Source: Chloroflexota bacterium (GTDB lineage: Bacteria > Chloroflexota > Anaerolineae > JAAEKA01). Taken from it: a stretch of 48,847 nucleotides of DNA. The position numbers were made by a program, and so were the translations under genes. The stretch is taken from NCBI GenBank assembly GCA_029558955.1, contig JAKQCW010000253.1, positions 1 through 48,847 of the forward strand, read 5' to 3'. Of this stretch, positions 5,895-14,769 are shown piece after piece; position 1 is the first letter of the stretch, and every line of letters begins with the position of its first letter. The notes beneath the pieces were generated by a model. It saw only the letters and a list, made by a program, of their open reading frames with translations, searched no databases and was not told the origin of the DNA.

Positions 5895-6704
5895 ATGCCC
5901 TCGATCACAGACCAGACGCATCTGCTGGGGGAGCAGTACAACACCTCAGCCAATCTGAGCGCGCGCAGCTCACTGCACGAACGTTTCAGCGTCAATCAAC
6001 AGGGCTGGCACCCGTGGGTCTTCGACCAGCTTGCCAGCCTGCCGGAGAGCAGCCGCATCCTGGAACTGGGCTGCGGCCCGGGCTGGCTGTGGGTTCACAA
6101 CTGGCAGCGCATCCCGCCGGGCTGGGAGATCACGCTGACCGACCTGTCGCCCGGCATGATCGCTCAGGCGCGCCAGAACTTGGCAGCAGAGGGCGAGGCG
6201 CGTTTTCGTTTCGACGTGATCGACGCGCAGGAGATCCCCTATCCCGATGCGGCCTTCGATGCCGTGGTGGCCAACCACATGCTCTACCACGTGCCTGACC
6301 GGCCGCGGGCGCTGGCTGAGATCAGGCGCGTGCTCAAGCCGGGGGGCCAGCTCTTGGCCGCCACCAATGGCCACAACCACATGGCCGAGCTCTGGGAGAT
6401 CGTGCTCCAGGTGACCGACGCGACGCGCGACGCCAATCGTTCCGAGTTTCACTTCGGCCTGGAAAGCGGCCGGGAGCAATTGCAGCCCTGGTTCGACGTC
6501 ATCGAGCGCCGTGACTACCCCGACGCCTTGCTGGTCACCGAGGCTGAGCCGTTGATCGCCTACGCCGCCAGCAGCGCGCTGTGGGGGGTGCAGGGGGACG
6601 CGGCCGCGACCGAACGGCTGGCCGCCCATGTTCGCCGCCAGCTTGCCAGCGAAGGGGTGATTCGCATCAACAAGAACTCGGGGATATTCGTGGCCCGCCG
6701 ATGA
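5895..6704 (+). CDS. Class I SAM-dependent methyltransferase
   Basis: A 269-aa cytoplasmic methyltransferase. Motif I is ILELGCGPG (about residues 55-63). An acidic strand end TDLSPGM is followed by the DAQEIPYPDAAFDAVVANH segment, typical of the Methyltransf_11/UbiE-like fold. ATG 5895 begins 2 nt after the decarboxylase stop and the gene overlaps the next one by ATGA, so it sits in the middle of a three-gene operon. Pairing with a UbiD enzyme is reminiscent of quinone or aromatic metabolism, but the substrate is not evident. Confidence 0.85.
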   Translation: MPSITDQTHLLGEQYNTSANLSARSSLHERFSVNQQGWHPWVFDQLASLPESSRILELGCGPGWLWVHNWQRIPPGWEITLTDLSPGMIAQARQNLAAEGEARFRFDVIDAQEIPYPDAAFDAVVANHMLYHVPDRPRALAEIRRVLKPGGQLLAATNGHNHMAELWEIVLQVTDATRDANRSEFHFGLESGREQLQPWFDVIERRDYPDALLVTEAEPLIAYAASSALWGVQGDAAATERLAAHVRRQLASEGVIRINKNSGIFVARR

Positions 6705-7450
6705 GCGAACCCCCGAAAAGGCGACCGGGGAGACTGGTTCTGCCGCTGCTGGCCTTGTTATTGGTCCTGTGCGGCGCGCTGATCCTGGTCGGCCTGGCCG
6801 TGCAGCCGCGCCTGGCCGTGGCCGCCGATCAACTGCTGCGCCTGCGGGCCTGGTTCAGCGACCCGGCGGCCAACCCGGAGTGGACGGTGCTGGGCGGCCA
6901 GCGCTGCCTGCCTGACGCGCCCATGCTGATGCCCACGCCCGGCTACATCGGCTTTGGCTGGGATGACAGCTTCCGTCCCGGCCACCGCCACAGCGGCTAC
7001 GACATCTTCACCCCGGACGGCGCAGTCAACGTCACGCCGGTCATTGCCGCCTACGACGGCTATCTGACGCGTGAGCCGGGCTGGCGCAGCGCGGTGATCA
7101 TCCGTCATCCTGACTTCCCCGCCATCGTCCCCGGCGCAGAGATATGGACCTACTATGCTCACATGGCCTCGGCCGACGGCAGCGAGTCCTTCATTGCGCC
7201 CCAGTTCCCGGCTGGCACGCGTGAGTTGTTCGTGCCGGCCGGCACGCTCTTGGGCTACCAGGGCAACTGGTCAGGCAACGCCGCCAACCCCACCGGCATC
7301 CACCTGCACTTCTCCATCGTCAGATCCACGCCCGGCGGCGGCTACGCCGACGAGACCGATATCGTCAACACCTACGATCCCGGCCCCTTCCTGGGAGTGA
7401 CGCGCAACGCGGCCGGGGTGTTGGTCTGCGCGGGGGCAATCACGCCGTAA
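6701..7450 (+). CDS. Membrane-anchored M23 (LytM-type) metallopeptidase
   Basis: A 249-aa protein with an N-terminal signal-anchor helix (about 13-35) and an extracytoplasmic peptidase M23 domain. Zinc-site residues are visible: H97 and D101 in HSGYD, and H201/H203 in HLH. M23 enzymes cut peptidoglycan cross-bridges or other glycine-rich peptides. The start is fixed by the ATGA overlap with the methyltransferase gene. Its link to the decarboxylase and methyltransferase is positional only. Confidence 0.85.
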   Translation: MSEPPKRRPGRLVLPLLALLLVLCGALILVGLAVQPRLAVAADQLLRLRAWFSDPAANPEWTVLGGQRCLPDAPMLMPTPGYIGFGWDDSFRPGHRHSGYDIFTPDGAVNVTPVIAAYDGYLTREPGWRSAVIIRHPDFPAIVPGAEIWTYYAHMASADGSESFIAPQFPAGTRELFVPAGTLLGYQGNWSGNAANPTGIHLHFSIVRSTPGGGYADETDIVNTYDPGPFLGVTRNAAGVLVCAGAITP

Positions 7451-7609
7451 CATTCCATCGGATGGCGCGAAACCGGGTCAGTTTTCGTTTAGCTCTGTGA
7501 GGGCCTGACAGGCGGGCGCAGATGACGCCGGGGCTGCACACCAATCTTATTCCCGCCTTTCGTAGGCAGGGAGTGGCCGTTCGTAGTCGACATCGATGCA
7601 GAGGCCAGC

Positions 7610-9298
7610 ATGGCAAGTCAATCGGCTTACCAGTTTGACGTCTATATCAGCCATAGCCCAGATGATGAAGAGTGGGTGGATGGCTGGCTGCTGCCGCGGC
7701 TGGAAGCGGCCGGGCTGCGGGTCTACGTGCACTACCGCGACTCCCAGCCGGGCGCGTCGCGCCAGAGCAACATCGAGCGAGGCATGAAGGGCAGCCGGCG
7801 CACCGTGGCCGTGGTGACGCCGGCATGGCTGGCCAGCGAGTGGAACCTGTTCGAAGACACGCTGGTGCGCAGCCTGGACCCGGCCGCCCTGCGCCGCCGG
7901 CTGATCCCCCTCAAGCTCAAGGAATGCGAGCTGCCCGAGTCGCTGGCTGCGCTGGAGAGCATCGATCTAACTGCCGAGCGGCGCTGGGAGCAGGGCATTA
8001 GCCGGCTGCGGCGCGATCTGGAGGACATAGTGCCCGTGCCGGCGCCGTGGCGGCAAGACCCCGGCGCGCCGCTCTGGACGCGCTGGCGGCGTTGGCTGCG
8101 GAGGTATCGGCGGGAGGTATTTTGGGGTGTTGCAGGTGCGGGTCTTGTCGGGGCCGTGTTGTTCTCGTTTCTGGGGTGGTGGCCGTTTCAGGATCGTCTG
8201 GTTTGGACAGCCGAAGCACTGGATGCGCCATTCGGATGGGTGGTCCACATCACGGGCGTCGCATTGATTGTCGGCGCGCGCAATCCACTGGAAGGCTGCG
8301 ATCACCCACACAAAGGCTTGTGGCAACGTCCCCTGGCCGATCCGGACGCCTGGCAGGACAGCGATGTGGGTGACTTGTTGTGTATTCCAAACCGCGACGC
8401 GTTGTCAGACATCCAGGCGATCACATCGCTGCCATCAGAGCCAACCAGGGTGTTTGTCTTGACCAGCCACTCTGGGGTGTTGGTCAGCGAAGACGACGGC
8501 GCACATTTCGAACACTATGCAGTTGGGCCGCCGGTGGAAACCGACAACGTCCCCAACTTGCTGGTGATCGACGGATCAGATGAATCGTCTGCGCTATGGG
8601 CCGCGGGTAGGGAGCGCGGCCTGTTTCGCTTTGCTGACGGTGAATGGAGCCGGCTGGACCAGCCGGGTGGCTGCGACGGCCTGCCGGGCGAGTTAGCTGT
8701 CACAGCTCTGGCAACGGACGGCAAGCGTTTGCTTGTGGGAACCAACCGCCGCGGGCTGTGGATCAGTGACGATGGTGGTCAAAGCTGTCGCCAGGTATTC
8801 GATCCCGCCGGTGATTACCAGTTTCGGGATCTTCTACCAGTTCCAGGCAGCGCCCGGCCGCGTTATCTGGCGCTCGTCCGGGATTGGCGGCTGGAGCCAG
8901 GTGGTTCTCTCGGAGCACATCAGTTGCTTGACCTGTGCCCGCGCGCCGACTCGTGCAATTCCGACCAGTGGCGCAGCGACAGCACCCCGGAGTGGGATGG
9001 CAGCAGCGCGGTGAGCGACGTGATAGTACAGGTGGGTCGATCCGGCGAGGCGGAATGGTACCTGTCCACCGCGTTGGGAGGCGTATGGCGCGGCGGCTTG
9101 AGCGGGGAACAGCCAGAACGACTGCCAGGCATCCCGCGCTGTGTCGTGATCTGCGAAGTGCGGCTGGCTTCAGTCGGGCCGGGATCTGCACCCTATTTGC
9201 TGGCGGCAGCGCAACGAGCGGGGCTGCCAACTGTCCTGGCGCCAGGACGTCACTACTCCCTGACCGATGGCCCCTGGTGGGCACGGATTTGGCCTTGA
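7610..9298 (+). CDS. TIR domain - transmembrane - Asp-box beta-propeller protein
   Basis: A 562-aa protein. Residues 8-145 form a TIR domain (FDVYISHSPDDEEW at the start; PAWLASEWNLFE near box 2/3). A single membrane helix (about 168-190) leads to an extracytoplasmic region of about 360 residues with Asp-box-like turns (VSEDDGAHF, ISDDGGQS), as in BNR/sialidase-type propellers. TIR domains either cleave NAD or act as adaptors. Helix C reads SNIERGM, with E56 its only acidic residue; whether this is the catalytic glutamate needs a structural alignment. ATG 7610 has agagg 6 nt upstream. It is the first gene of the operon, with the protease gene 18 bp downstream. GC content drops noticeably in the C-terminal half. 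Confidence 0.82.
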   Translation: MASQSAYQFDVYISHSPDDEEWVDGWLLPRLEAAGLRVYVHYRDSQPGASRQSNIERGMKGSRRTVAVVTPAWLASEWNLFEDTLVRSLDPAALRRRLIPLKLKECELPESLAALESIDLTAERRWEQGISRLRRDLEDIVPVPAPWRQDPGAPLWTRWRRWLRRYRREVFWGVAGAGLVGAVLFSFLGWWPFQDRLVWTAEALDAPFGWVVHITGVALIVGARNPLEGCDHPHKGLWQRPLADPDAWQDSDVGDLLCIPNRDALSDIQAITSLPSEPTRVFVLTSHSGVLVSEDDGAHFEHYAVGPPVETDNVPNLLVIDGSDESSALWAAGRERGLFRFADGEWSRLDQPGGCDGLPGELAVTALATDGKRLLVGTNRRGLWISDDGGQSCRQVFDPAGDYQFRDLLPVPGSARPRYLALVRDWRLEPGGSLGAHQLLDLCPRADSCNSDQWRSDSTPEWDGSSAVSDVIVQVGRSGEAEWYLSTALGGVWRGGLSGEQPERLPGIPRCVVICEVRLASVGPGSAPYLLAAAQRAGLPTVLAPGRHYSLTDGPWWARIWP

Positions 9299-9316
9299 AA
9301 CAATAGAGGTGTGAAC

Positions 9317-12300
9317 ATGGCAGCGTTAGATTTCCAGGAACCGATCTATCCGCCCTTGCGTTGGGAGCTACCCGAGCGCCGTTCGCCAGGCTTACCTGAG
9401 CGTGAACGATTTCCCGTCGATCCGGTGCGCTGGCGGCTCTCAAGCGAGGTGCTGCACGCGCTTCGCAGCAAACATCCAGAGCGTATCGCCGGCCAGTCGT
9501 TTTCTTGGCGTGCGAAACTATTTCGTGCCACTGGTCTGCCGGCATCCTTGCGCACGTGGGTGGATGCCCCATTCTCCCTTGACGACGAAAAAGCCCAAAG
9601 CGAAGCGCACAGGGTGTTGACGGCCAGCCAACTGTTCTTGGCGCTGTTTGGCGCGGCCAATGAAGACAACCCTGCGAATGATTTTGATCCGGCGCCGATC
9701 ATCAAGGTACAGACCAGCCCTGGTCAGGATGGCGGTGCAGTCATGCGCCATTTCTCCTGGCGCCAGATACATCGAGATGTGTCAGTGCTGGGCGGCAGCG
9801 TGCGCGTGCATGACGTGACCGGCGACCGTCGCGTCTGCGTCACCAGCAGCTATTTCCCCGTGTCCGACGCCCCACCCGATATGGAAAAGTATATCAGCGC
9901 CGTAGATTGCATGTGGTTCGCGCTGCTCTCCTTGCTTGAAACCAGAGCCATTTCTCCGGAAGCCATATTGGCAATCATGGTGCCGCGATTTTTTCGGGAG
10001 CGACGAGGACAAGAAGCCGCAAATTTCTTTCGTGTTCTGGAAGAGGCATTCTCACGTGGTAACTGGGGAGACGGTGGTGAGCTCTCCTGGCTCCTGACGG
10101 AGGCCTTCGCCAGGTGGCGTGAGCGTGGTGAGGGCAGTGATGTCGCAGCAGAGGAACTGGAGCTAATCAGAGACTGGCTGCGGATGCGCTACGACGGTGT
10201 CAAGTTTCGAGTCGAGGTAGCGCCCATTCAGGGTAGCAAACTTGCCATCGTGCCCTGGGCCGGAGCGTATGCATTGATGCAGCGCGTCCAGGTGACGCTG
10301 CCGAACCATTTACTGTGGTACGTCGATATCGATGCACACAACGGCAACGTCTTGGGCGCTCCGTGGCAGGCCGTGGCTGGAGCACCGACCTATTTTACGA
10401 CTTCGGGGGAGGCTGCTGCTGAGATGCCGGTCGGGGATGCAGCCAACGTTTCAACCAATGATCTGGCCGCCTATGTGACTGTGCTGGATGGCGGCACCGT
10501 GCAGTTGGGCGCAAACAGATCCTTGTCGGCTTCACTATCCGTCGACGCGGCAACGGTCGTGGTGCATGGTCAACAGCTCTTACAGCATTTGCAGAACCAC
10601 TGCGGCGCCAATCTCACCCCACCGCCTTCTCCCCTGACCGTCTATGCCCGTAGTACGCAGCATGACATCCAGGTTGCCGGATTCATTCCTGGCTCCCCCG
10701 GCGCGGTGCATTTCAAGAGCACCCCGGCGGCTGGCGCCATGGTGGGCGGCATGAGGGTCTTCCATCCTGCACGAGACCCTGAGGTTGTCATGCACGAGTT
10801 CGCCCACGCGTTTCTGTGGCTGATGAACCCCGATCCGTGGGATGTGCTCACGGGGCTGGCTCCGTTCAGCCGCGCCTTGCAAGAGGGCTACGCCATGTAC
10901 CTCTCGCGTTCCCTGGCTGCCAAGAACGGAGATAACCAAGATCAGCGCTGGGGTCGCGGCGCATATCGTCCTCAAAACGCCAATGGCACGGACAACTGGG
11001 CCGATCGTTGGCGGCTGGACCGCCCCACCCGCGTGGCGGGCGCGGATTTCTTGCCGGCCCTCAACGCCTATCCAGCGGGCGAGTACACCCTCCAACTCAC
11101 CCTGGAGGATTACGATGTAGGTATGGTATGGGCGCGGGCGCTGTGGGACCTGCGCACTGTGCTGGGTCCAGCGGTCGTCGACAAGCTGGCGGTGCGCGCT
11201 TATCCCTACCTACACGGCCACCTGACCAGTTTCGAGCTGGCGGCCGAGGCGTTAATCAACGCTGACGCTCAAGTGAGCGAGATGGACCTGGGCAACGGCA
11301 CCCAGCCTGTGTGGGCTGGTCGCGGCATCGCGGCCGGTCAGGGCATCTGCGGCTTCGCCGAGACACAGAACGGCACATTGACCGCTGCCGGCGAGGCAGG
11401 CATTCTGCGCTCCGACGACGGCGGCGCCAGTTGGGCGTCAGAGAGCGCCAACCTGGCCGGCGGAGGCACCCTCACAGGCGTCGTAGCAGTGGCAGCCGAT
11501 GGCAACCACCTGATCGCTATCGCCGAGTTGCCCCCGCCAACCGCCACTGGCAGCGATCCACAGTGGAACCCTGGCGTCTATTGGCGTGACCTGAGCCAGG
11601 CGGGCAGCCTGTGGCAGGAAGTCCCCAACTGGCCGAACGACATCACCCCGTTGTGTCTGCTACGCGTTGGAAATGGGCGAGTGCTGGTGGGCAGTAATCG
11701 CGGGGTATATGTGCTCGATCGAAGTGGGACAAACCAGTTTAGCTGGACGCCACCCACGGACACCAGCTTCCCCGCTCTGGCGTTGACGCAGGTAACGGCG
11801 CAAGGGCTCAACTTCGTCCAGGCCATGAGTCCCGGCAGGCTGCACAGAAGTATCCTGTCCAGTCAAGGAACGCTATCCTCAACGTGGACCGAATCGGGCG
11901 GACTCTTCGATGCGGCCAACAAGACGCGGGTCACAGCATTGGTTGGTCTGGGTTCCGATGTGTTCGTGGGAATCTTGCCATCTGCCTCTCAATCTAGCGC
12001 CGCGTCAGGGGCCGGAAGCAGGCTGAGGCAACTCAGCCAGAACTGGTCAGTCAATGCGCCGTTGGGCAACGTGACATCGGCGGTGTTGGCTCTTGCTGTC
12101 GGTGCGGGCGCGGTTTGGGCAGCCACGTCCGACGATATCCTGCGCTGGCAGAACTCGACATTGACCTCGTTTGGGTACCCTGCTCCACGGGCGCAAGTGA
12201 CGAGTCTGGCAATCACTGCTACTCACTTGTTGGCTGGAACGCTCGCCCACGGCATCTGGCGGCGCCCTCTGGTCGGCGGCTCTTGGCAATCAGTCTACTC

Positions 12301-12586
12301 TCCAACTCAACCAGGCAACCTATCGGTTCCGGCCAATGGTGCTGTCGTGCTGAGCGTGTTGCTGGACGCTGATCAGCCGGCCTTTACGTTCAATGTACCA
12401 GGTGGCACCCTTGCTGTGGATGCAGTTTTTCAGGTTGGATTTCCTCCAGCCTTGATTGCTCCGAACAATCTAGGTAACTACAATCTGGAGACAGGCGCTG
12501 TCGTTTTCACGTTGCGAAACCTGACAAACACAGAACAAGTCTTCCAAATGAATCGAGTCGCTTCCGATCAACTGATAGTGACGTGA
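9317..12586 (+). CDS. Giant HExxH (gluzincin-like) metalloprotease with Asp-box propeller C-terminus
   Basis: A 1089-aa protein. About residues 200-400 resemble a propeptide-like region. The zinc motif is H493-E494-F-A-H497, and E523 in LQEGYAMYLS is a plausible third ligand, as in thermolysin/fungalysin-type gluzincins. From about residue 670 to the end there are propeller-like repeats including a perfect Asp box, SDDGGASW (about 697-705), the same theme as in the upstream TIR protein. No signal peptide is visible at ATG 9317, which has AGAGG 7 nt upstream; it may therefore stay in the cytoplasm or leave by another route. The DNA is less GC-rich than the neighbourhood. It lies 23 bp before the next gene, in the operon. 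Confidence 0.78.
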   Translation: MAALDFQEPIYPPLRWELPERRSPGLPERERFPVDPVRWRLSSEVLHALRSKHPERIAGQSFSWRAKLFRATGLPASLRTWVDAPFSLDDEKAQSEAHRVLTASQLFLALFGAANEDNPANDFDPAPIIKVQTSPGQDGGAVMRHFSWRQIHRDVSVLGGSVRVHDVTGDRRVCVTSSYFPVSDAPPDMEKYISAVDCMWFALLSLLETRAISPEAILAIMVPRFFRERRGQEAANFFRVLEEAFSRGNWGDGGELSWLLTEAFARWRERGEGSDVAAEELELIRDWLRMRYDGVKFRVEVAPIQGSKLAIVPWAGAYALMQRVQVTLPNHLLWYVDIDAHNGNVLGAPWQAVAGAPTYFTTSGEAAAEMPVGDAANVSTNDLAAYVTVLDGGTVQLGANRSLSASLSVDAATVVVHGQQLLQHLQNHCGANLTPPPSPLTVYARSTQHDIQVAGFIPGSPGAVHFKSTPAAGAMVGGMRVFHPARDPEVVMHEFAHAFLWLMNPDPWDVLTGLAPFSRALQEGYAMYLSRSLAAKNGDNQDQRWGRGAYRPQNANGTDNWADRWRLDRPTRVAGADFLPALNAYPAGEYTLQLTLEDYDVGMVWARALWDLRTVLGPAVVDKLAVRAYPYLHGHLTSFELAAEALINADAQVSEMDLGNGTQPVWAGRGIAAGQGICGFAETQNGTLTAAGEAGILRSDDGGASWASESANLAGGGTLTGVVAVAADGNHLIAIAELPPPTATGSDPQWNPGVYWRDLSQAGSLWQEVPNWPNDITPLCLLRVGNGRVLVGSNRGVYVLDRSGTNQFSWTPPTDTSFPALALTQVTAQGLNFVQAMSPGRLHRSILSSQGTLSSTWTESGGLFDAANKTRVTALVGLGSDVFVGILPSASQSSAASGAGSRLRQLSQNWSVNAPLGNVTSAVLALAVGAGAVWAATSDDILRWQNSTLTSFGYPAPRAQVTSLAITATHLLAGTLAHGIWRRPLVGGSWQSVYSPTQPGNLSVPANGAVVLSVLLDADQPAFTFNVPGGTLAVDAVFQVGFPPALIAPNNLGNYNLETGAVVFTLRNLTNTEQVFQMNRVASDQLIVT

Positions 12587-12609
12587 ACATTCGTCGGAGG
12601 AGGTACAAG

Positions 12610-13482
12610 ATGCAACGTCCAAGCATTCTGCTGCTCGCTATCGTTCTCACGATGGCATCACTCGGAGCGTCTTTGCGTTTGGCCACACAAGCCACACAAG
12701 GCGTCGATTCCTCTGCCGGCCAAGACATGGCCTCAACACGACCTGTTTCTGGCTCAATGCCAGGTGCGCCACATGCCAGTCTCGACCTCGTTGCTGAGTA
12801 TGCTTTTGATCAGACCGATCAGGAAGCTGCCCTTTGGACCCTGGGCAGGGATGGTCGAGCTGGAAAACGGCTCAGTTTTCTGCTAACTGGCAGCAGAATC
12901 AAGACCTATGCTGAGCCATCGCTCGTGAAAACCGCTGTCAATCATCGCCGTCCGATGATATGGTTGAATCGCAATGAGGACAAGGAACCCAATACCTACA
13001 CCTTGGTCGCCATCAGCGATCCAGAGCTGTTACTGAGACTCCAGATGGACCGTGTCCATTCATTGTCGACGATCATGCCCAATCTGCCCTCGGAAGAACT
13101 CCGGAAGACAGCCAAAGACGTCGGACTTTGTCCGCGCGATCTCGGGGAAGACAGCCGCGTCCCGGTGGAGGAGCTTGCCATTGGGCGAGCCCTGAGCGCC
13201 ACACTGCAAGGCGAGTTGGTCGCGCCAGATGGCACGTTCGTACCGATCACCATCAGCCACGTCGATTTCCAGCACGACGCAGAGTTGGCCCAACTCTGCT
13301 ACAACACGCCTGGTTTTGTTCTGCTTGCGCCCTCCTTTCCTGGCTGGCAAGACTACCAACTACACATGGTCTTGAAGAACAATGTCGCCGGGCCGCCGGG
13401 CGAAGGATGGGTGCCTCTGTGCAGTAGCTGGCAGGCAGGCAACTGGTGGAATCGTTTTCTAGCGACCCTCTATGGTTGCTGA
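12610..13482 (+). CDS. Exported protein of unknown function
   Basis: 290 aa, not recognised. It starts with a typical Sec signal sequence (MQRPSILLLAIVLTMASLGA), so the mature protein should be extracytoplasmic. ATG 12610 follows a very strong ribosome site (GGAGGAGG) at ideal distance; an in-frame GTG at 12583 would spoil the signal peptide. The mature part has few cysteines, the last residue is cysteine, and no catalytic motif stands out. Base composition is visibly less GC-rich than its neighbours. The protease and caspase-TIR genes lie 23 bp before and 18 bp after, so it belongs to the same transcript and probably the same system. Confidence 0.7.
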   Translation: MQRPSILLLAIVLTMASLGASLRLATQATQGVDSSAGQDMASTRPVSGSMPGAPHASLDLVAEYAFDQTDQEAALWTLGRDGRAGKRLSFLLTGSRIKTYAEPSLVKTAVNHRRPMIWLNRNEDKEPNTYTLVAISDPELLLRLQMDRVHSLSTIMPNLPSEELRKTAKDVGLCPRDLGEDSRVPVEELAIGRALSATLQGELVAPDGTFVPITISHVDFQHDAELAQLCYNTPGFVLLAPSFPGWQDYQLHMVLKNNVAGPPGEGWVPLCSSWQAGNWWNRFLATLYGC

Positions 13483-13500
13483 TTTCGAGGAAGGTTTAAT

Positions 13501-14769
13501 GTGACGCCTCTCCCTTCCGCCCACGCCCTCCTCGCCGGCATCGCCGCCTACCAGCACGTCTCCCCGCTGCCGGCGACGGTGCTGAACGATGCGCGCGCGG
13601 TGTATGATGTGCTGGCGGCTCCGGAGCGGGGCGGCTATGCCCGCGACCACGTCACATTGTTGTTGGACGGCGCAGCCACGACGGCAGCGCTGCGCCAGGC
13701 GCTGGCTGACCTGGCGCAGCGCTGCGACGCCGACGCCACGGCGCTGATCTATCTCTCCTGCCACGGCGCACGTATCGAGCAGGGGCCGCAGGCCGGCCAG
13801 TACCTGCTGCCGGTGGACGCGGATGCCAGCTCGCCGCAGGCCCTGGCCGCCACGGCCATCTCCGGCGCCGAGTTCACCGATGCGCTGCGGGCCATTCCGG
13901 CGCGCAAGGTGGTGGTCATTTTCGACTGCTGCCACGCCGGCGGCATCGGTCAGCCCAAGGACGCGTTGGCCCCGGCGCTTCAAGCCGGCCTGACCGAGCG
14001 CTACTACGAGGCGCTGCTGGCCGGCCGGGGCCGCGTCATCCTGGCCTCCTCGCGCAGCGATGAATTTTCCTATGCCTTGGCTGGCGCCCCCAACAGCGTC
14101 TTCACCACGCATCTGCTGGCCGGCCTGCGCGGCGACGTCGCCGCCGATGACGGCCTGATCCGCATCTTCGACCTGTTCGAATACCTCCAGCCGCGCGTCA
14201 CCGCTGCCATGAACGGCCGCCAGCATCCGGTCTTCAAGGCTGAGATCGAGGAGAACTTCCCGGTGGCGCTGCGTCTGGGCGGCCAGGCCAAGGCCGTGGC
14301 CCGCGCAGCGGATGGCTACCTGTACGACGCCTATCTCATCTACGCCGAGAAGAGCGAGCGCGACCGGGAGTGGGTCTGGCGCAACCTGATCCCGCCGCTG
14401 GAGGACGCTGGCCTGCGGGTGGCCATCTCAGCCGATGTCTTGCAGGCCGGCGTGGCGCGCGTCGCCACGGTCCAGCGCGGCATGCAGCAGGCCCGGCGCA
14501 CGGTGGTCGTCCTGTCGCAGGCCTTCCTCTCCGACGCCATGGCCACGTTCGAGGCCGTTCTGGCCCAGACCATCGGCATCGACCTGGAAAACGCCTGGCG
14601 CGTGGTCCCGGTGCTGACCGAGGCAATCGATCAGAGTCGACTGCCCTACACCCTGGCCAGCCCTATGGCTGAGCCGATTGACCTGGTCGCACCGCTGCGA
14701 CCGGCCTATGGCCTGCCCCGCCTGGTTCGCGCCCTGCAAGGGCCGCCGCCCGCGATTCTGCCCCGCTGA
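13501..14769 (+). CDS. Caspase-like protease fused to a TIR domain
   Basis: 422 aa. Residues 5-250 form a C14 caspase/metacaspase-like p20 domain with the catalytic dyad: H88 in SCHGA and C144 in DCCHAG. Residues about 272-412 form a TIR domain (DAYLIYAEKSERDREWVW). Its helix C reads TVQRGM, so Q325 stands where the upstream TIR protein has E56, which suggests an adaptor or sensor TIR, not an NADase. There is no signal peptide, so it should be cytoplasmic. GTG 13501 has AGGAAGG 6 nt upstream; the overlapping ATG at 13499 is followed at once by TGA. It is the fourth gene of the TIR/protease operon. Bacterial caspase-like proteins are known effectors of TIR signalling in antiphage defence (type IV Thoeris), which makes the pairing meaningful. 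Confidence 0.85.
   Translation: MTPLPSAHALLAGIAAYQHVSPLPATVLNDARAVYDVLAAPERGGYARDHVTLLLDGAATTAALRQALADLAQRCDADATALIYLSCHGARIEQGPQAGQYLLPVDADASSPQALAATAISGAEFTDALRAIPARKVVVIFDCCHAGGIGQPKDALAPALQAGLTERYYEALLAGRGRVILASSRSDEFSYALAGAPNSVFTTHLLAGLRGDVAADDGLIRIFDLFEYLQPRVTAAMNGRQHPVFKAEIEENFPVALRLGGQAKAVARAADGYLYDAYLIYAEKSERDREWVWRNLIPPLEDAGLRVAISADVLQAGVARVATVQRGMQQARRTVVVLSQAFLSDAMATFEAVLAQTIGIDLENAWRVVPVLTEAIDQSRLPYTLASPMAEPIDLVAPLRPAYGLPRLVRALQGPPPAILPR

What the first reader, a model, noticed from the sequence alone, without database searches (positions are those of the whole stretch)
7610..9298. TIR domain linked through one membrane helix to an extracytoplasmic beta-propeller
Bacterial TIR proteins are usually soluble. 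An inside TIR with an outside Asp-box propeller has receptor topology, like animal Toll receptors but with a different ectodomain.
Basis: inference. Interest (0 to 1): 0.58.

Follow-up and report, generated by a model that had tools for sequence, protein, structure and literature searches.

The report
Bacterial TIR receptor paired with caspase-TIR
A bacterium carries a membrane receptor with an immune-type TIR domain inside and a propeller-shaped sensor outside, and the same gene cluster encodes a cell-death-type protease (caspase) bearing a matching TIR domain, which looks like a simple counterpart of Toll-type immune signalling.

Summary
ORF 7610-9298 has an N-terminal TIR (Pfam 1.6e-23), an arginine-rich juxtamembrane stretch, one hydrophobic helix (170-188) and a C-terminal beta-propeller of the Asp-box/BNR class. 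The topology is N-in/C-out. The propeller is well supported on orthologues and only weakly on the window protein alone.

The topology itself is ordinary in this phylum: 29 of 60 sampled TIR proteins have one helix after the TIR and an outer domain, and 11 of the 20 of these that I scanned carry WD40 propellers.

Three things around it are not ordinary. (1) The gene heads a four-gene cassette that ends in a caspase-TIR fusion. These are the only two TIRs detected in the genome, and their TIRs fall in one clade of a 71-TIR tree. (2) The same caspase-TIR sits beside a different membrane TIR-propeller receptor in another family of the phylum, and a third pair shows the same logic. (3) Against two genus-mates, the block from the transmembrane helix to just before the caspase has been exchanged: almost no nucleotide similarity, 30-33% protein identity, lower GC3. 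Both ends stay conserved.

Best reading: an extracellular sensor coupled by TIR-TIR contact to a caspase effector, with an exchangeable sensing module. All function is inferred.

The parts
7640..8008 (+). TIR domain of the receptor (residues 11-133)
   Evidence: PF13676 E=1.6e-23; Glu of the catalytic position present at residue 82
8030..8116 (+). Arginine-rich juxtamembrane segment (residues 141-169), 86-97% identical to the two orthologues
8117..8173 (+). Single transmembrane helix (residues 170-188), N-terminus inside
   Evidence: hydropathy and charge bias, conserved in 3 of 3 orthologues; shuffle control; helix 155-188 in the model
8180..9295 (+). Extracytoplasmic Asp-box/BNR-class beta-propeller (residues 191-562)
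   Evidence: profile match to GH74 propellers 1.7e-17; fold match of the orthologue's ectodomain; weak on the window sequence alone
9311..12586 (+). Metallopeptidase-like protein, 1091 aa: HEFAH at residues 495-499 and E525, C-terminal propeller-like region (11315-12361), no signal peptide; relative L010 carries FTP and, below cut-off, PepSY propeptide matches
   Evidence: no Pfam match for the window copy itself
12583..13482 (+). Secreted or membrane-anchored protein of unknown fold (N-terminal hydrophobic segment); the relative L010 has an added LysM domain
13522..14259 (+). Caspase (Peptidase_C14) domain, His88 and Cys143/Cys144 conserved
   Evidence: PF00656 E=9.6e-17; alignment A5
14353..14646 (+). 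TIR domain of the caspase-TIR fusion
   Evidence: PF13676 E=3.4e-10; own-genome match of the receptor TIR, 37% identity, E=2.2e-14
8118..13516 (+). Exchanged block: no blastn similarity to L010 or L009 and only two short matches (55-63 bp) to L032; flanks 78-92% identical

Best explanation
The cassette encodes an outside-in danger or non-self sensor coupled to a caspase. The propeller of the single-pass receptor binds something outside the membrane (a ligand, a protease, or the co-encoded LysM-type surface protein). Binding clusters the receptor, so its inner TIR domains form a seed. That seed recruits the TIR domain of the co-encoded caspase-TIR by like-with-like contact, and proximity turns the caspase on. 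The caspase then damages the cell directly, or activates the co-encoded metallopeptidase zymogen. Shown by computation: domain order, topology signature, conserved cassette, private kinship of the two TIRs, and exchange of the block between TIR and caspase. Inferred: ligand binding, clustering, TIR-TIR contact, caspase activation and any death or immunity outcome.
For: Four same-strand genes with gaps of 12, -4 and 18 bp. TIR_2 search of all 6 genomes of the order: exactly two TIRs in each of G000, G302 and G303, always these two, and none in the other 3. Tree of 71 TIRs: 4 receptor TIRs and 4 caspase TIRs form one clade (99/88); a second pair from G011 also falls together, with one other TIR (100/99). 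In G011, another family of the phylum, the same caspase-TIR (62% identical) lies directly downstream of a TIR-nSTAND-TM-WD40 protein. In a second G011 locus a TIR-caspase lies about 30 bp downstream of another TIR-nSTAND-TM-WD40 protein. Sensor parts differ while the caspase-TIR stays: 86% identity to G302 against 32% for the ectodomain. The catalytic Glu is lost in one member of each of the two G011 pairs, but kept in 59 of 59 background TIRs, which fits a contact role for at least those TIRs. Caspase His and Cys are conserved in 3 of 3.
Against: No experiment. Both TIRs of the window keep the catalytic Glu, so an enzymatic role is not excluded. The four-gene cassette is known from 3 genomes of one genus; a fourth member (G301, 72% complete) lacks it. 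The metallopeptidase has no signal peptide although it is exchanged together with the ectodomain, so its place in the pathway is unclear. Joint exchange can be explained by linkage alone. The background TIRs of the tree were picked by high TIR_2 score and long frame, and few columns were available.
Confidence: 0.5

Rival explanations
1. Second-messenger version: the receptor TIR is an NADase that makes a cyclic ADP-ribose-type signal on ligand binding, and the TIR on the caspase reads it or amplifies it, as in type IV Thoeris where a TIR product activates a caspase-like protease.
For: Catalytic Glu kept in all 6 TIRs of the three genus genomes; type IV Thoeris precedent (passages of PMC12847820).
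Against: Glu is lost in the receptor TIR of one G011 pair and in the caspase TIR of the other; the caspase carries a TIR, where a ligand-binding domain would be expected; nearest solved relatives of both TIRs are Toll/MyD88 type, although a TIR of another Chloroflexota TIR-TM-WD40 protein also finds Hydra TRR-2 first.
Confidence: 0.22
2. Protease-sensing loop: the propeller, like the Streptomyces propeller DAIP that acts on thermolysin-type metallopeptidases, senses the co-encoded or a foreign metallopeptidase, and the secreted LysM-type protein is its partner or substrate; the cassette is a Toll/Spatzle-like protease-to-receptor circuit.
For: Orthologue ectodomain model matches DAIP (5fzp, and 6fhp with a thermolysin fragment) at about 1e-9; FTP and PepSY matches in the relative of the co-encoded peptidase; ectodomain, peptidase and g3 are exchanged as one block.
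Against: DAIP does not stand out from GH74 and Ycf48 propellers; no sequence match to DAIP listed; the peptidase has no signal peptide in the window or L010, while a paralogue does.
Confidence: 0.12
3. Not immunity: a surface sensor for polysaccharide or cell-wall state that controls a developmental or lysis programme.
For: Ectodomain relatives are xyloglucanases; LysM in the relative of g3; neighbours look like housekeeping genes (UbiD-like and methyltransferase by reading; CrtC; M23 below cut-off).
Against: The exchanged block with saturated dS between conserved ends looks like diversifying recognition rather than a housekeeping sensor.
Confidence: 0.14

Closest known systems
Metazoan Toll/TLR - MyD88 - caspase-type signalling
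   Same: Single-pass receptor with an outer sensor and an inner TIR, a second TIR protein carrying the downstream module, and TIRs whose nearest solved relatives are TRR-2, TLR1, TLR6 and MyD88.
   Different: Reverse orientation (TIR at the N-terminus), propeller instead of leucine-rich repeats, caspase fused directly to the TIR with no death domain or kinase.
TIR-TM-WD40 and TIR-TM-FGE proteins of Chloroflexota
   Same: N-terminal TIR, one helix, C-terminal outer domain; 29 of 60 sampled, 11 of 20 scanned with WD40 propellers.
   Different: Asp-box propeller, not WD40; of the 60 survey loci (12.5 kb or less each) only L109 and L079 held a relative of the window caspase, and only L109's carries a TIR (L079's by reading its sequence).
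Effector-associated-domain (EAD) conflict systems and EACC1-caspase system (Kaur et al. 2020, 2021)
   Same: The same adaptor domain on sensor and on effector (caspases among them), predicted like-with-like recruitment, filamentous or multicellular hosts (passages of PMC8195603 and PMC7159879).
   Different: The shared domain is a TIR, not one of the small non-catalytic EADs; no EACC1 gene recognised; no STAND NTPase in this cassette.
Type IV Thoeris
   Same: TIR upstream of a caspase-like protease, in one operon (PMC12847820 passages).
   Different: Here the TIR is membrane-bound with an outer domain, and the caspase carries its own TIR.
GH74 xyloglucanases, Ycf48, sortilin Vps10, DAIP
   Same: Asp-box propeller fold and sequence profile (DAIP by fold only).
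   Different: One propeller of about 370 aa on a membrane TIR; catalytic residues of GH74 were not examined.

Membership tests
Toll-like receptors | Leucine-rich-repeat ectodomain at the N-terminus, TIR at the C-terminus (type I) | tested here: not met
   TIR at residues 11-133, helix 170-188, propeller at the C-terminus; no LRR match
Toll-like receptors | Single membrane helix with the TIR inside | tested here: met
   Helix 170-188 with 7 K/R on its N side, conserved in orthologues; prediction, not shown by experiment
TIR domain | TIR_2/TIR profile above the curated cut-off | tested here: met
   84 bits against 28
NADase TIR | Catalytic glutamate in helix alphaC | tested here: met
   E82 in the window; E in 8 of 10 partner TIRs and 59 of 59 background TIRs
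NADase TIR | NAD hydrolysis or cyclisation | not testable with these tools
   needs an enzyme assay
Asp-box/BNR beta-propeller | Asp-box repeats and propeller fold | tested here: met
   Met on orthologues (BNR, Sortilin over cut-off; fold) and on the joint profile; window alone below cut-off
Caspase (C14) | C14 profile and His/Cys dyad | tested here: met
   PF00656 9.6e-17; H88 and C143/C144 invariant in 3 of 3 (motif recalled)
Type IV Thoeris | TIR making N7-cADPR and a caspase-like effector that binds it | not testable with these tools
   PADLOC 2023 gave no Thoeris call beyond weak ThsB TIR matches
EAD systems | Small non-catalytic adaptor shared by sensor and effector | tested here: not met
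   The shared domain is a TIR
EACC1-caspase system | EACC1 gene 5' of the caspase gene | tested here: inconclusive
   Upstream gene 12583-13482 has an N-terminal hydrophobic segment but no Pfam match; whether Pfam holds an EACC1 model was not checked
Gluzincin metallopeptidase (M4/M36-like) | HExxH and a downstream Glu, FTP/PepSY propeptide | tested here: met
   H495 E496 H499 E525 invariant in 3 rows; FTP 3.3e-6 over cut-off and PepSY below cut-off in L010; no Pfam match in the window copy

The most novel reading that the evidence does not exclude
A bacterial Toll-MyD88-caspase analogue in two proteins: a surface propeller receptor and a caspase joined by matched TIR domains. The outer sensing module (transmembrane helix, propeller, metallopeptidase, secreted LysM-type protein) is exchanged between species as one block, while TIR and caspase-TIR stay fixed. 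This would be an allele-swapping non-self or kin-recognition locus.
Probability: 0.3. Interest if true: 0.85.

Novelty: new variant of a known kind. Interest (0 to 1): 0.62.

Why it matters
It offers a minimal bacterial system in which an extracellular sensor and a caspase could be wired by TIR-TIR contact alone. That would bear directly on how Toll-type signalling arose, and on whether bacterial TIRs can be scaffolds rather than NAD-consuming enzymes. The block exchange gives a natural experiment on which parts form the specificity unit.

Tried and rejected
Rejected: 'no propeller' and 'soluble TIR'. Rejected: a misassembled contig as the cause of the block difference. The ectodomain is in frame with the TIR, is homologous to the orthologues (32%), and the gene order is unchanged. 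Also rejected: fast mutation of an otherwise vertical block. dS is 1.4-2.5 between the window's block and the relatives, against 0.2-0.7 in nearly all conserved parts, and lower GC3 in the block is shared by both alleles.

Led nowhere: first AlphaFold2 job on the full receptor (pLDDT 46.7); PDB profile search with the metallopeptidase (0 matches); Rfam (0 matches); promoter/terminator scan (1 promoter-like site, none on the + strand, against 1.4 expected; 5 terminator-like against 5.0); repeats at the block edges (none found at 20 nt); metallopeptidase profile in 400 phylum genomes (only the own genome), so the source of the block is unknown.

Literature: searches gave no paper on a bacterial TIR-TM-propeller paired with a caspase-TIR, judged by listings and by the passages that I read. 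One search (TIR-WD40, TIR-TM, WD40-TIR, caspase-TIR, TIR-caspase, TIR-FGE) listed 2 papers, neither about this by title and abstract. The library holds open-licence PMC papers only, so absence there is weak. One search was for DAIP.

Full report
What is there. The ORF at 7610-9298 (+) encodes 562 aa. Residues 11-133 are a TIR domain (PF13676 1.6e-23). Residues 141-169 are arginine-rich and nearly invariant among orthologues (86-97% identity to the window). Residues 170-188 are the strongest hydrophobic helix (KD 2.04) and have 7 K/R in the preceding 15 residues; the same peak occurs in both orthologues. In 2000 shuffles, 114 reached that hydropathy and none also had the basic flank. The rule that positive charges stay inside (established knowledge) puts the TIR inside and the C-terminal 372 residues outside.

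The ectodomain. Evidence on the window sequence alone is weak: Pfam Sortilin-Vps10 20.4 bits against a cut-off of 33, no PDB match by phmmer, and an AlphaFold2 model with pLDDT 46.7. With orthologues it is strong. BNR passes its cut-off in both L010 and L009, and Sortilin-Vps10 in both. The three-row profile finds GH74 propellers at 1.7e-17 and, below that, Ycf48 and sortilin. The L010 ectodomain model (pLDDT 58.0, pTM 0.66; low confidence above all after residue 265) matches propellers with Foldseek E to 1.1e-10 and Z 15-17. Z values of WD40 and GH74 propellers are tied, so the fold class is safe and the subfamily rests on the sequence profile.

How ordinary is the topology? TIR_2 was found in 133 of 400 sampled genomes of the phylum. 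From the listed matches I took 60 with an open frame of about 350 aa or more (47 genomes, plus a second match in some), so the sample leans to long, high-scoring proteins. 29 of 60 have exactly one predicted helix, lying after the TIR and followed by 177-1101 residues. Of these 29 I scanned 20 with Pfam: 11 have WD40 propellers (one of them with an nSTAND domain before the helix), 5 an FGE-sulfatase domain, 4 no other domain.

The cassette. Downstream, on the same strand and with gaps of 12, -4 and 18 bp, lie a 1091-aa metallopeptidase-like protein (HEFAH...E; propeller-like C-terminus, profile comparison with the receptor ectodomain E 1.6e-4 but probability 50), a 299-aa protein with an N-terminal hydrophobic segment, and a 422-aa caspase-TIR fusion (C14 9.6e-17, TIR_2 3.4e-10). 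In the relative L010 the second protein carries an FTP propeptide match and the third a LysM domain. The metallopeptidase has no signal peptide in the window or in L010, whereas a paralogue elsewhere in the genome does (by reading the sequence). Full-length or nearly full-length receptor orthologues exist in G302 (record JACSRL010000433, submitted as Anaerolinea sp. CH3) and G303 (JAJTXO010000364, Caldilineales bacterium DTUCFX11; cut by the contig end), 2 of the 3 other members of the genus (that the G handles and these records are the same contigs follows from equal lengths and positions). A search of 301 phylum genomes with the receptor found only TIR-region matches outside the own genome.

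The two TIRs belong together. TIR_2 in all 6 genomes of the order gave 6 matches: the receptor and the caspase-TIR in each of three genomes, and nothing in the other three, of which one is 72% complete. In a tree of 71 TIRs (140 columns; many forks unresolved) the three genus receptors, one G011 receptor and four caspase TIRs form one clade (99/88), nearest to a TIR of G246. In G011 (another family of the phylum) the caspase-TIR of the same architecture, 62% identical to the window's, follows a TIR-nSTAND-TM-WD40 protein. At a second G011 locus a TIR-caspase in the opposite domain order follows a TIR-nSTAND-TM-WD40 protein, and those two TIRs also fall together, with one further TIR (100/99). 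Thus partner TIRs are kin while the sensor parts differ. Across 400 phylum genomes the caspase-TIR profile aligned over its whole length only in G000 and G011; 33 other genomes matched mostly over the caspase part.

Enzyme or scaffold? The Glu at the catalytic position is present in 59 of 59 background TIRs and in 8 of 10 partner TIRs. It is Thr in one G011 receptor and Gln in the other G011 locus's caspase partner. All six TIRs of the three genus genomes keep it. Nearest solved relatives are Hydra TRR-2, TLR1 and MyD88 types for the receptor and TLR6, TLR1 and MyD88 for the TIR part of the caspase-TIR. One control TIR of the phylum found bacterial TIR proteins first and another found TRR-2 first. 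The balance favours contact, but does not decide.

The exchanged block. Between window and L010, blastn gives 92% and 85% identity left of the cassette and 78% over 7581-8118. It then finds nothing until 13517, and 85% after that. L009 also ends at 8118, and L032 (the G303 contig that covers the middle) resumes at 13516, with two short matches of 55-63 bp inside the block. L010 against the G303 contigs is similar through the block where contigs cover it (69-76%). Protein identity window-G302: UbiD-like 91, methyltransferase 84, TIR 70, juxtamembrane 96, ectodomain 32, metallopeptidase 33, g3 30, caspase-TIR 86, CrtC 88. For G302-G303, the more distant pair by methyltransferase (69) and CrtC (82), ectodomain, metallopeptidase and g3 are 73, 62 and 66. 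dS window-G302 is 0.20-0.69 outside the block and 1.9-2.1 inside; GC3 falls from 0.84-0.89 to 0.61-0.67. Along the receptor the fall begins between residues 121 and 180. The step is present in both alleles but milder in L010 (0.73-0.76 against 0.83-0.88). The simplest account is exchange by recombination in the conserved ends. Whether the three proteins form a functional unit or are only linked is open.

Mechanism and rivals. I commit to ligand-driven clustering of the receptor and recruitment of the caspase-TIR by TIR-TIR contact (0.5). The second-messenger rival is modelled on type IV Thoeris, which I know here from passages of PMC12847820; the original paper was not read. The protease-sensing rival rests on the fold match to DAIP, which triggers autolysis of thermolysin-type proteases (passages of PMC4757070). 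Kaur et al. describe the same like-with-like logic with small adaptor domains (passages of PMC8195603 and PMC7159879). The survey of prokaryotic caspases PMC3501461 (passages) mentions TIR once, at a place that was not shown to me. The TIR survey PMC7075850 (passages) describes single-span TIR receptors only for animals in what I saw. PMC10907252 (passages) reports hypermutated sensors with caspase-like and TIR domains in multicellular bacteria, a related theme with another sensor.

Verdict. Observation confirmed. New variant of a known kind.

Noticed in passing
L032 1-4668 (G303:C441): In G303 the metallopeptidase frame begins only in mid-protein, and a DDE_3 transposase reading frame lies just upstream on the same contig (4143-4667), so that copy seems to be interrupted.
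   Followed up: partly
L109 and L134 (G011): One genome holds two loci with TIR-nSTAND-TM-WD40 followed directly by a caspase joined to a TIR, once as TIR-caspase and once as caspase-TIR.
   Followed up: partly
window 6581-7450: An M23-like peptidase (below the Pfam cut-off) with an N-terminal membrane segment lies just upstream of the receptor in the window and in L009, but is absent at that place in L010.
   Followed up: partly
window 12583-13482 against L010 7722-8744: The secreted third protein lacks the N-terminal LysM domain seen in L010 and, by alignment, in L032.
   Followed up: partly
L099, L117, L122, L092, L105: TIR, one helix and an outer FGE-sulfatase (formylglycine-enzyme-like) domain recur in this phylum: 5 of 20 scanned single-helix TIR proteins.
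   Followed up: no
L135 7710-8366 (G246): A small protein with two N-terminal hydrophobic segments and a C-terminal TIR, the nearest neighbour of the receptor/caspase TIR clade, next to a larger protein that looks like TIR plus ATPase plus helical repeats (by reading only).
   Followed up: no
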